Shown here one piece after another: positions 9,340 to 15,172 of a DNA stretch of 64,000 nt. The first letter of the stretch is position 1. Each line of letters starts with the position of its first letter. The stretch covers positions 1 through 64,000 of the forward strand of contig NC_030990.1 of assembly GCF_000149955.1 (NCBI RefSeq), read 5' to 3'. Both the position numbers and the translations under genes were made by a program. This DNA is from Fusarium oxysporum f. sp. lycopersici 4287. Lineage: Eukaryota; Ascomycota; Sordariomycetes; Hypocreales; Nectriaceae. The notes under the pieces are model-generated. The model was not told the origin of the DNA and ran no database searches. It worked only from the letters and a program-made list of their open reading frames with translations.

Positions 9340-10619
9340 TTAGTTAGCTATATTGCCCCAACTTCTCTTTAACACGTCTCTCAAGCTATCTTTATATGCA
9401 TTCTGGAATCTTTCATCCAACTTCAGAAAGTCGATGGCATTTCCAGCTAGCATCATTGCACGTTGTTCCATTGACAGAAACTCAGAGAGTGTTCCGTTGG
9501 ATGTCAACATCTTGCCTGCTTCAGGAACTTCGCCAAGGGGGAAAGGATAGTCGCTTCCCATGAGAATGCGATCCACTCTTATCTTCTTGCAGAGGTATGC
9601 AAGGAGATCTGGGTCATGGACCAGGCTGTCTATCCAGAGATTGTCGCCTGAGCTAAGGTGATCTGAAGGACTTCGGCCACCTGCTCTTGAAGCGACCAAG
9701 TCTGGCCTGCAATTGTATCCGTGTTCAATTCTTCCCATCAGAGTTGGGAATGCTCCTCCCGCGTGAGCAAAGCAAAAACGCAACCGTGGGTATCGCAGTA
9801 GGAGCCCGGAGGATGTCAAGGCCAGCATCGATAGGGCTGTCTCACAGGGCCTAGTAATCGATCAGTCATTCTCTTGATTAAATACACCCCCTCGGTTACA
9901 TACATTCCAATCAGCCATGAAGACCAATATTGACCCCATCGATGTTCATTCTCTCTGAGCAGTGAGTATCCCAGTGGATGGACAAAAACTGGCATATCTA
10001 ACTCTTGGCAGGCAGCCCAAAATGGGTCCAATCTAGAATCGTCAAGGTTCATTTCACCGATCGTAGTTCCAATTTCGACGCCCTTTAGTCCGAGGGTATA
10101 TTTTGCTCTCTTCAGCTCTTCAACAGATGCTTGCACATCTTGCAGTGGAACCGTCGCAAGACCAACAAATCTGGTCGGGTATTCTGTGCACACCTGTGAC
10201 AGGTGATCATTGAGTGCTCGGGCCAACTGGGCGACCATTTTGCCTGGCTTGTCGTAGAAGAACAGGACCGGAACTGTACTCAATACCTGGACATGGACGC
10301 CAGACCGGTCCATATCCCTTAAGCGTACTTCCGGGTCAAAACAATTGTCTTGGACGGTTCGGAAATGTTTGGAATCGACATAGATATCAACGGACTCTCC
10401 ATCCACGATCGACGGCTTTAGTTCAATCCATGAGTCCGACCGTGTTCCATTTTGTTCAGAGTCAGACAGCTGTGGCAAAGTCCGTGGCATGACATGTGTA
10501 TGTAGATCGATACGATAGAAGCTATTGTTAGTCATCCCAGCCGAGTGCCCGTCCCCAGCATCGATGCCCTTGAGGCACCCGTTGTACTGCTTTGTCATTG
10601 TCAACGAGTCAATTGCCAT
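9340..10619 (-). CDS. ACMSD-type amidohydrolase (2-amino-3-carboxymuconate-6-semialdehyde decarboxylase)
   Basis: Two exons, 10619-9904 and 9850-9340. A 53-nt intron (GTATGT donor, TACTAG acceptor) joins WLIGMPCETALSML. About 408 residues. It has the amidohydrolase-2 metal ligands: RIDLHTHVMP (H40, H42), a later FVHPLG, FAHAGG and MGSDYPFP. ACMSD removes CO2 from 2-amino-3-carboxymuconate semialdehyde, the ring-opened product of 3-hydroxyanthranilate, so quinolinate does not form. HAAO and an aldehyde dehydrogenase follow on the same strand and catalyse the steps before and after, which supports this over a gamma-resorcylate decarboxylase. The open frame extends upstream of the ATG, so an alternative start is possible. 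Confidence 0.82.
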
Positions 10620-11469
10620 TGTAGAAAGATGTGGAAATGTGCTTGAAGTGGTAAGCAAGTCAGGTGCTCCACCCCGCTATCTCTTTCGATTTGGATATAA
10701 AGAGGTATTTGCGGTATATTATATGATTTCGGCAGGCTTTGACTTCTGCTTGCGTGGCTATGTACCGTGGAGCCCTGATAGCTCAGCATCCGACGGGCGG
10801 CCCGCGGATGCATGGGTGGAGATTGAACCATCATCTACATCCCGGCCGGTCCGCACTGGACACGTTGAGGCCTACTGCCACATAAACTTGGGTATGACCA
10901 ATTCATCCTCGTGAGATTCATTAAGTAGATGGGCACCAGCAGAAGGTCCATAGCTGTCTTCTGTCTTCAGGTGGCTGTAGAGGTCTGGTAGGAAGGTTCA
11001 TCAATGCCGAACTAATAGAGTTTGTCCTTATCCGATCAGCGCAGCTAAGCGGGCCGACGACCGAAGGCACACAGACATGCATATTGTATACTATAGAAAG
11101 TCTTTAATAGAATTAAAATGCCATTTTCTTTCGTATTTCATATCAATATATATAATAATAGAACTTAGTTACTTCCTGAGGTTTAAAATATAATAAGTTT
11201 AGTTCTGTAAACTATAGGGCTGTTAAGATACATGAGATGGCATAGACTAGTAATCCCAGTCTCTATATTTTACTGCTATGCATTACTGGCCATGGATCGA
11301 ATTGTAATTTCATATTTATAGAACAGCTATATATATTAAAAATATCTCGGTTTAATTTTCAAGGCTATAAAAAATAATTTAATCACATCTGCCTAATATT
11401 GTGCTAATTGTAATACTGGGGATCCTCCACTTTGCCGCATTTTGGGCATGTTCTCCTCTTTTCGTCACG
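10620..11469. other. Intergenic stretch, AT-rich in the right half
   Basis: Contains the ACMSD promoter. The 11100-11400 part is AT-rich. The plus-strand open frame at 10525-10914 is a shadow of the ACMSD 5' region. No other gene seen. Confidence 0.4.
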
Positions 11470-12047
11470 TCACCATCGCTCAATCGGATCTAAGAGCTGC
11501 TTGCCAAGATCTGAAACATAGAAAGACTCTTCGTGGATCAAAGTAGGCTCTGAGTGATTCCCCTTGGTACAATACCAACGCAAACAGTCCAAGCTGTCAC
11601 TTGGCCTAACCATTTCCATAACGAGGCCAACAGTGTCTGCAATGCGTACTGGAGAGTGAGGGGTATTGGCTGGGTGAAGCAATGCGGTTAGTTGTTGAGG
11701 ATCTCATAACGAATGAACTAAGCGGTATTCTCGCAGACGCACCATATACCAAGAACATCTCGCTTTCTCTGATAGTCACATGCCGAATCTGGTTGTACTC
11801 GATGAGCAGGAGCAGCATGCTTCCCTTGATCTCGTAGGACCACTCTTCCATGGAATTAACTTGAACCGAAGTCAGCAAATAAATAGCTCTTGTTTTCATC
11901 AGATCGTGGCCGAGTTCTCACCATGGAAGTCGTTTCGCGTATTTGGACCTCCTACGACCTGGAGAATGAAATCTTTACCGTCGTAGAGCGCACTGGTCGG
12001 CCCGCGTAATTTGCATGGCGGTTCATGGGCCGCCCAATTTCCAACAA
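11470..12047 (-). CDS. 3-hydroxyanthranilate 3,4-dioxygenase (5' exon unresolved)
   Basis: Three exon pieces are clear: 12047-11922, 11859-11743 and 11669-11470. Introns of 62 nt (GTGAGA...CAAG) and 73 nt (GTGCGT...CCCAG, branch CTAAC) separate them. The joined protein reads DFILQVVGGPNTRNDFHVN, then EEWSYEIKGSMLLL, MFLVYANTPHSPVR and IADTVGLVMEMVRP. These match the cupin fold of HAAO, with iron ligands in NDFH, the Glu of EEW and the His of TPHSPVR. HAAO cleaves 3-hydroxyanthranilate to 2-amino-3-carboxymuconate semialdehyde. No ATG is in frame in the first piece and a TAA lies just upstream at 12058-12060. Either a 5' exon joins at the acceptor near 12048 or the gene is decaying. Confidence 0.75.
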
Positions 12048-14284: not shown

Positions 14285-14719
14285 TTGTGCTGAGGTTGGT
14301 CCTATGCTTGCTTTGCTTATTAGTCGGTTAATTATGGGCAAAAAGGCGTCGCAGTGTATTTAATCTCATTTCGAAAGGCATCACGTTCGATATCGTATGC
14401 CCAGATGGAGACACTGCAGTTCCCGGAAAAGGCACCGACTCGGAACCACTCACGGTCGCTGTCATAGTCACCGAAGCTGGTTGCGGCCCGAATCCCGGCT
14501 CATGCAACAAAGTGTCGGCAAGCGGGTAGCCACCACTAGAGTACTAAAGATTACCTGACCAGACCCACCAAGTTTAACTAGCTACGGTGCAGGACAATAA
14601 TTCTCGCGTTCCTAATTAAACACAAACTGATGCCCAGACCTCTACCTCCGCTCATTGCATATCAGTAATTGACTCGATTCTCTAAGAAGGTTGAATTCTT
14701 GGCGTTGACCACATTGAAA
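14285..14719. other. Divergent promoter of the ALDH and RidA genes
   Basis: 435 bp between two divergent genes of the same presumed pathway, so a shared control region is likely. I see no clear repeated operator in it. Confidence 0.4.
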
Positions 14720-15172
14720 ATGGCGTCCCAAAACGGCGAACCCTTCTTTCTCCCAGCTGAAAAAGCTCAATCCCTCGCCAACTATCCCCACGCTCGAATA
14801 ATACAGCAATCAGCCAAGACCATTTTCGTTTCTGGCACTTCGTCACGCCGTGGCGATAATACAGTCGCCGGTTGCACTACAGACACCGACGGAACGCACC
14901 ACCTCGATATTTCCCTGCAGACAGAAGCGGTACTGCAGAACATCGGTGCTATTATTGACGGGGCAACAAACGGCGCATGCGGACTGCAGAACGTGGTCAA
15001 CGCCACTGTTTTCTTGACCGACATGAAAGATTATGCTGGGATGAACACGGAGTGGAATAAGGTATGGCCGGACAAGACCAAGGCGCCTGCGAGAACCTGT
15101 ATACAGGTTGCGGCTTTACCGAATGAAAGGCTGAACGTGGAAATTCAGTGCACTGTTTTGTGGGCAGAATAG
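14720..15172 (+). CDS. RidA/YjgF-family 2-aminomuconate deaminase-like protein
   Basis: 150 residues from the ATG at 14720, no intron. It reads LANYPHARIIQQ, IFVSGTSSRRGDNT, VNATVFLTDMKDYAGMN and PARTCIQVAALP. The GTSSRR string and LANYPH are typical of bacterial 2-aminomuconate deaminases (the NbaF/AmnE type), which release ammonia from 2-aminomuconate. This would be the step after the divergent aldehyde dehydrogenase. An upstream, non-ATG extension of the frame (from 14669) is unlikely to be used. A general imine/enamine deaminase role cannot be excluded. Confidence 0.85.
   Translation: MASQNGEPFFLPAEKAQSLANYPHARIIQQSAKTIFVSGTSSRRGDNTVAGCTTDTDGTHHLDISLQTEAVLQNIGAIIDGATNGACGLQNVVNATVFLTDMKDYAGMNTEWNKVWPDKTKAPARTCIQVAALPNERLNVEIQCTVLWAE

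What the first reader, a model, noticed from the sequence alone, without database searches (positions are those of the whole stretch)
9340..15172. A 3-hydroxyanthranilate meta-cleavage pathway encoded as a fungal gene cluster
Four adjacent genes match consecutive steps: HAAO (11470), ACMSD (9340), an aminomuconate-semialdehyde-type ALDH (12670) and an NbaF/AmnE-like RidA deaminase (14720). In established biochemistry these convert 3-hydroxyanthranilate via 2-aminomuconate to an oxo/hydroxymuconate. Bacteria use such sets for 2-nitrobenzoate and tryptophan breakdown. Clustering of the whole series in a fungus, with a regulator, two aminotransferases, a second RidA and a P450 next door, suggests a dedicated way to use anthranilate-type carbon and nitrogen, perhaps plant- or microbe-derived.
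Basis: partly seen in the sequence, partly recalled or inferred. Interest (0 to 1): 0.85.

Follow-up and report, generated by a model that had tools for sequence, protein, structure and literature searches.

The report
Fungal 3-hydroxyanthranilate cluster, first gene decayed
A Fusarium oxysporum-like fungus carries a known four-gene set for breaking down a tryptophan by-product, but its ring-opening gene looks broken, so the other three probably depend on a second copy of that enzyme elsewhere in the genome.

Summary
The four family calls are right. ACMSD, AMSDH and the RidA protein each match the expected pathway enzyme best among solved structures, and their frames are open. An HAAO homologue lies between AMSDH and ACMSD. 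The set is not new: Martins et al. 2021 (PMC7842363) described this "3-hydroxyanthranilate catabolic gene cluster" across Ascomycota, Fusarium included. The genome is F. oxysporum or close (best named hits 98% identical).

New here: the cluster's HAAO copy looks decayed. It has no in-frame start, a stop just upstream, a scrambled N-terminal arm, an early stop near the C-terminus, and changes at 12 of 59 conserved columns. The genome keeps an open canonical Bna1 about 2 Mb away. Most likely ACMSD, AMSDH and the deaminase now draw on Bna1's product, diverting it from quinolinate/NAD toward 2-aminomuconate and 2-hydroxymuconate (inferred; no expression or enzyme data). The cluster HAAO is not a recent copy of Pezizomycotina Bna1. 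It groups with basidiomycete enzymes, but other placements are not rejected. Neighbouring aminotransferases, P450 and second RidA are not shown to belong.

The parts
9340..10619 (-). [quoted passage not shown]
   Evidence: 98% identical to P0121, named F. oxysporum; metal-site and substrate-site residues of ACMSD 2wm1 present in the alignment (residue roles recalled)
11470..12057 (-). HAAO homologue, decayed: exon remains 12057-11922, 11859-11743, 11669-11470; no in-frame start, stop upstream, premature TGA at 11472-11470
11407..11469 (-). in-frame remnant of the HAAO C-terminal metal-site segment (TCPKCGK) behind the premature stop
   Evidence: frame shown; part of the proteins P0001, P0002 and the merged model P0242
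12670..14284 (-). AMSDH (2-aminomuconate semialdehyde dehydrogenase, ALDH8-like), exons 14284-13869, 13812-13302, 13248-12670, 501 aa
   Evidence: 98% identical to P0241, named F. oxysporum
14720..15172 (+). RidA-family protein of 2-aminomuconate deaminase type (AMDA), 150 aa
   Evidence: control RidA2; purifying selection against the C15 paralogue, dN 0.067, dS 0.686 by NG86
6638..8498 (+). neighbour, not part of the pathway: DDE_1 transposon with 46-nt perfect terminal inverted repeats

Best explanation
This is the known ascomycete 3-hydroxyanthranilate catabolic cluster, in a Fusarium oxysporum-like genome, with a decayed ring-cleavage gene. Shown: the four families, open ACMSD, AMSDH and AMDA genes, the lesions in HAAO, and an open canonical Bna1 elsewhere. 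Inferred: Bna1, whose normal role is NAD synthesis, opens 3-hydroxyanthranilate to 2-amino-3-carboxymuconate semialdehyde. Cluster ACMSD removes CO2 before it cyclises to quinolinate. AMSDH oxidises the semialdehyde to 2-aminomuconate, and AMDA deaminates that to 2-hydroxymuconate / 2-oxo-3-hexenedioate. Later steps are unknown.
For: Best structural relatives are exactly the pathway enzymes, and the RidA2 control behaves as generic RidA. Same gene set published in Ascomycota. AMSDH keeps the two arginines at the R120 and R464 positions of 4i1w, plus the catalytic N, E and C (alignment; roles recalled). HAAO lesions; terminal branch 0.29 against 0.022 and 0.041 for two other F. oxysporum copies. 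Departures at columns conserved in at least 90% of outgroups: HAAO 12 of 59, ACMSD 10 of 140, AMSDH 6 of 226; outgroup medians 1.3-1.6%. ACMSD and AMSDH have no close second copy: next best-scoring matches 29% and 39% identical, AMSDH up to 46% over short stretches (one search scored 86 of 98 candidates). Bna1 at C5:2017748 reads as an open 180-aa protein after splicing. Kynureninase at two loci and one quinolinate phosphoribosyltransferase are present.
Against: HAAO keeps both introns with usable splice sites and the residues aligned with iron ligands and substrate arginines (roles recalled), which suggests either very recent loss or some remaining function through an unseen start. 24 start/donor combinations for two acceptors were found upstream, none with more than two of four donor positions matched, but transcript data could show one. 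P0001, an open model from another strain, also departs at 10 of 59 conserved columns, and one of 117 outgroup rows departs more often than the window (21.5%), so part of the divergence is lineage-wide and departures alone do not prove loss. An assembly error cannot be excluded. ACMSD's 7.1% exceeds the outgroup 90th percentile (5.2%); P0121 and P0122 give the same 10 of 140, so this too is lineage-wide and may mean some relaxation. No expression data.
Confidence: 0.68

Rival explanations
1. The whole cluster works, HAAO included, from an unrecognised upstream start exon and without the C-terminal metal-site segment.
For: Splice sites and predicted catalytic residues are kept; animal HAAO works without the fungal-type C-terminal site (recalled); HAAO genes of this cluster are easily missed by annotation (A. 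terreus 3HAO is not annotated in public databases, PMC7842363).
Against: No in-frame ATG and no good donor among the combinations tried upstream; the N-terminal arm differs at 14 of 22 compared positions from P0001, against 15 of 127 in the rest; changes at two columns invariant in 116 of 116 outgroup rows (F to S, Q to E).
Confidence: 0.15
2. The whole cluster is dying: HAAO went first and the rest is on its way out, with no current function.
For: Decayed HAAO; transposon 0.8 kb beyond ACMSD; start of an assembly contig; ACMSD shows 7.1% departures.
Against: ACMSD and AMSDH are 98% identical to clusters of 59 and 42 member sequences whose given name is F. oxysporum, with open frames here; RidA1 and its paralogue evolve under purifying selection.
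Confidence: 0.12
3. Feed-in from 2-aminophenol (for instance from benzoxazolinones) by a LigB-type dioxygenase, so that AMSDH and AMDA act without HAAO.
For: LigB-family matches at four places in the genome (C7, C2, C9, C13); Fusarium turns benzoxazolinone into 2-aminophenol (recalled).
Against: Does not explain a conserved ACMSD, which that route does not need; none of the LigB matches is on the window's stretch; their subfamily was not tested.
Confidence: 0.05

Closest known systems
3-hydroxyanthranilate catabolic gene cluster of Ascomycota (Martins et al. 2021, PMC7842363)
   Same: Same four families (3HAO, ACMSD, AMSDH, AMDA); Fusarium named among carriers
   Different: HAAO copy decayed here; no Baeyer-Villiger monooxygenase or amino acid transporter among the 10 flanking ORFs scanned (not all window ORFs were scanned; an SDR lies 20 kb away at 34921); expression in salicylate was shown for A. 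terreus, not here
Bacterial nba/amn sets (2-nitrobenzoate, 2-aminophenol)
   Same: Same reactions from 3-hydroxyanthranilate or 2-aminophenol to 2-hydroxymuconate (recalled); AMSDH and AMDA find bacterial enzymes best in the PDB (source organisms recalled)
   Different: ACMSD is nearer to human 2wm1 (272.6 bits) than to bacterial 6mgs (194.9 bits) (organisms recalled); introns in three genes; no 4-oxalocrotonate decarboxylase match in the genome. No tree against bacterial sets was built
Animal kynurenine glutarate branch (HAAO, ACMSD, ALDH8A1)
   Same: Same first steps (recalled) and closest ACMSD structure
   Different: Genes clustered here, with a dedicated RidA-type deaminase

Membership tests
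Ascomycete 3-hydroxyanthranilate catabolic cluster | 3HAO, ACMSD and AMSDH genes adjacent, AMDA recurrent | tested here: met
   3HAO present only as a decayed homologue
Ascomycete 3-hydroxyanthranilate catabolic cluster | cluster 3HAO is an intact gene | tested here: not met
   so this is filed as a degenerate member, and the claim that the cluster alone runs the pathway is lowered
Ascomycete 3-hydroxyanthranilate catabolic cluster | induced with aromatic substrate (A. terreus, salicylate) | not testable with these tools
   no RNA data
ACMSD (not resorcylate-type decarboxylase) | closest to ACMSD structures by a wide margin, substrate arginines kept | tested here: met
   272.6 against 92.5 bits; residue roles recalled
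AMSDH | closest to AMSDH; carboxylate-binding arginines at R120 and R464 positions | tested here: met
   alignment (roles recalled); the lead is small: 354.5 bits against 344.4 (4o6r, an aldehyde dehydrogenase of unstated substrate) and 336.8 (betaine aldehyde dehydrogenase)
2-aminomuconate deaminase (RidA superfamily) | closer to 6izh than to generic RidA | tested here: met
   controls
All enzymes above | catalytic activity | not testable with these tools
   needs assays

The most novel reading that the evidence does not exclude
Fusarium has turned an imported catabolic cluster into a headless valve on its own NAD pathway. The cluster's HAAO came from a basidiomycete-type lineage, was lost in this F. 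oxysporum and perhaps in sister species, and ACMSD/AMSDH/AMDA now compete for the product of canonical Bna1, setting the split between NAD synthesis and tryptophan catabolism.
Probability: 0.25. Interest if true: 0.55.

Novelty: new member of a known kind. Interest (0 to 1): 0.36.

Why it matters
It shows from sequence that the recently described fungal 3-hydroxyanthranilate catabolic cluster reaches a crop-associated Fusarium, and it adds a testable twist: the dedicated ring-cleaving enzyme looks lost while the downstream enzymes are kept. If true, one enzyme (Bna1) would feed both NAD synthesis and aromatic catabolism, as in animals, and these fungi could serve as simple models of the quinolinate / 2-aminomuconate branch point.

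Tried and rejected
Rejected: ACMSD as a gamma-resorcylate or dihydroxybenzoate decarboxylase. Rejected: RidA1 as a generic RidA. Rejected: HAAO as a recent duplicate of the genome's own Bna1 (20 Pezizomycotina Bna1 rows, own included, form one side at 100/99, cluster rows outside). Not established: transfer of HAAO from Basidiomycota. The tree groups them (96/91, 94/98), but holding cluster plus Pezizomycotina Bna1 together is not rejected (p-AU 0.105), nor is a single basidiomycete clade (p-AU 0.172), nor cluster plus Protomyces (p-AU 0.091); the root is unsure, since the early-diverging outgroup has 45/14 support and is not one side of a branch. Not established: loss of HAAO in other Fusarium species. 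Among the 120 listed of 175 hits, 3 rows are named Fusarium, all F. oxysporum, whereas 5 of 120 listed ACMSD rows (of 7772 hits, candidates capped) and 9 of 120 listed AMSDH rows (of 7999, capped) are named Fusarium, and two models in F. napiforme and F. tjaetaba run from AMSDH into ACMSD; missing annotation would give the same picture. Second AMDA-type gene at C15:1054088 (87%): no other pathway gene recognised by eye among ORFs of at least 90 aa in about 10 kb on each side. The 26-bit HAAO hit on C8 is a short ORF of 124 aa that looks like a cupin by eye, not classified. Downstream steps: no match to 4-oxalocrotonate decarboxylase (TIGR03218; no control genome passed its cut-off either, so there is no positive control) or Tautomerase (PF01361; 6 of 14 controls pass); the aldolase model TIGR03217 gives 5 weak hits below its cut-off, and also matches below cut-off in all 14 control genomes.

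Full report
What is there. The window is the first 64 kb of contig C5 of a 61.2-Mb, 71-contig genome. The best named hits of ACMSD and AMSDH are Fusarium oxysporum proteins at 98% identity, so the organism is F. oxysporum or very close; the strain is not named. Three cluster genes lie on the - strand in the order AMSDH (14284-12670), HAAO homologue (about 12057-11470) and ACMSD (10619-9340). The RidA gene is divergent on the + strand (14720-15172). Introns were placed by hand at GT/AG sites that restore the reading frame.

Family assignment. Pfam gives Aldedh, 3-HAO, Amidohydro_2 and Ribonuc_L-PSP. NCBIfam, built for prokaryotes, gives no match above a cut-off among the rows shown and none at all for ACMSD. 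Against solved structures each protein picks the pathway enzyme first (source organisms of PDB entries are recalled): ACMSD finds human 2wm1 at 272.6 bits, bacterial 6mgs at 194.9 and resorcylate decarboxylase at 92.5. AMSDH finds Pseudomonas 4i1w at 354.5 bits, with 4o6r (aldehyde dehydrogenase, substrate unstated) at 344.4 and betaine aldehyde dehydrogenase at 336.8, so the margin is modest, but the arginines aligned with R120 and R464 and the catalytic N, E and C are kept (roles recalled). HAAO finds 1zvf, the yeast enzyme, at 98.2 bits. RidA1 finds 2-aminomuconate deaminase 6izh at 64.1 bits against 43.3 for the next. As a control, the second RidA of the window gives 82.5 bits to generic RidA and 26.8 to 6izh. 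The C15 paralogue of RidA1 behaves like RidA1 (60.8 against 43.5 bits).

The HAAO copy. Three proteins named F. oxysporum are among its nearest annotated relatives. P0001 and P0002 start with Met and share an identical N-terminal arm; P0002 lacks seven residues around the third iron ligand, which I read as a mis-set splice site, and P0021 is internally deleted, so only P0001 is a complete model. In the window the arm is preceded by an in-frame TAA, has no ATG in frame, and differs from P0001 at 14 of 22 compared positions, against 15 of 127 in the rest. A TGA ends the frame before a C-terminal metal-site segment that is still readable behind it for 21 codons and belongs to the protein in P0001 and P0002. 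The window copy departs at 12 of 59 columns conserved in at least 90% of 117 outgroup rows (outgroup median 1.6%, 90th percentile 6.2%, maximum 21.5%). P0001 departs at 10 of 59, so relaxation is not confined to this genome. The same count gives 10 of 140 for ACMSD (115 outgroup rows, median 1.5%, 90th percentile 5.2%; P0121 and P0122 also 10 of 140) and 6 of 226 for AMSDH (111 outgroup rows, median 1.3%). A search for an upstream start exon, ATG only and introns of at most 400 nt, gave 12 combinations for each of two acceptors, none with more than two of four donor positions matched; an earlier, differently limited search gave 14 candidates, one printed as donor-like with a 583-nt intron.

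What could supply the first step. The genome has a canonical Bna1 (C5:2017748; open 180-aa protein after splicing), kynureninase at two loci (C2 and C10) and one quinolinate phosphoribosyltransferase. The NAD branch is therefore represented, and its HAAO makes the substrate of ACMSD (established chemistry). ACMSD and AMSDH have no close second copy. RidA1 and its C15 paralogue show dN 0.067 and dS 0.686 by NG86, 0.076 and 0.494 by YN00, which is purifying selection.

Downstream. The bacterial lower meta pathway is not evident: no 4-oxalocrotonate decarboxylase match (without a positive control above the cut-off) and no Tautomerase match; these searches work exon by exon and can miss short or intron-split genes. 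Martins et al. [quoted passage not shown] terreus.

Origin of the HAAO. In a 60-row tree (56 of the 120 listed hits, two fused models, own Bna1 and the window; unnamed rows, P0021 and some named rows were left out; phylum labels were set by me from the names) the Pezizomycotina Bna1 proteins form one side at 100/99. The cluster HAAOs (three Fusarium, four Aspergillus; two of the Aspergillus rows assigned to the cluster by similarity only) fall with Basidiomycota and Protomyces at 96/91. In a 55-row tree without the fast Fusarium rows (and without P0038 and P0112) the grouping is 94/98, and three other arrangements are not rejected (p-AU 0.105, 0.172 and 0.091); the root is unsure. An inter-phylum origin is thus suggested, not shown.

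Prior work. A search for aminomuconate, fungal, gene cluster and 3-hydroxyanthranilate led to Martins et al. 2021, PMC7842363. I read parts 1 to 4 of 7 (abstract to conclusions) and passages. They define this cluster, name Fusarium among the carriers, include AMDA, note that F. graminearum lacks it, and suggest horizontal transfer for a second cluster in some aspergilli. The held text does not contain the word oxysporum, and its one occurrence of pseudogene is in a reference title; figures and supplements were not seen. Searches (listings only) showed no title or abstract opening on HAAO loss in Fusarium or a basidiomycete origin; the library holds open-licence papers only.

Neighbours. Pfam places a DDE_1 transposase (6772-8388), a DUF3433 protein, an S1/P1 nuclease, two class I/II aminotransferase genes, a P450, two fungal transcription-factor genes and an FAD oxidoreductase around the cluster (10 ORFs), and an SDR at 34921. 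None was linked to the pathway by evidence.

Verdict. A correct and well-read observation of a known kind of cluster, with one substantive correction: the ring-cleaving gene in this genome is probably dead, and the remaining three genes most likely tap the NAD-pathway enzyme.

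Noticed in passing
window 6638-8498: DDE_1 transposon with 46-nt perfect terminal inverted repeats and an open 538-aa transposase; at least 8 full-length or nearly full-length copies at 90% identity or more in the genome, this one included (counts are lower bounds), suggesting recent activity.
   Followed up: partly
G000 C15:1054088-1054537 (L027): Second AMDA-type RidA gene, 87% identical to RidA1, in a stretch with transposase-like ORFs and no other pathway gene recognised nearby.
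   Followed up: partly
window 36554-36946 and 56730-57122: Two nearly identical 130-aa ORFs on the - strand 20 kb apart, probably parts of a repeated element.
   Followed up: no
window 57727-63849: ORFs that by eye look like an AtuA-type (DUF1446) protein, acyl-CoA dehydrogenase and 4-coumarate-CoA-ligase-like enzyme side by side: another possible catabolic group, not scanned.
   Followed up: no
database models P0242, P0245, P0247, P0248, P0294, P0317: Public gene models in Fusarium and Aspergillus merge AMSDH with HAAO or ACMSD into one protein, so the cluster's genes, HAAO above all, are easily misannotated.
   Followed up: partly
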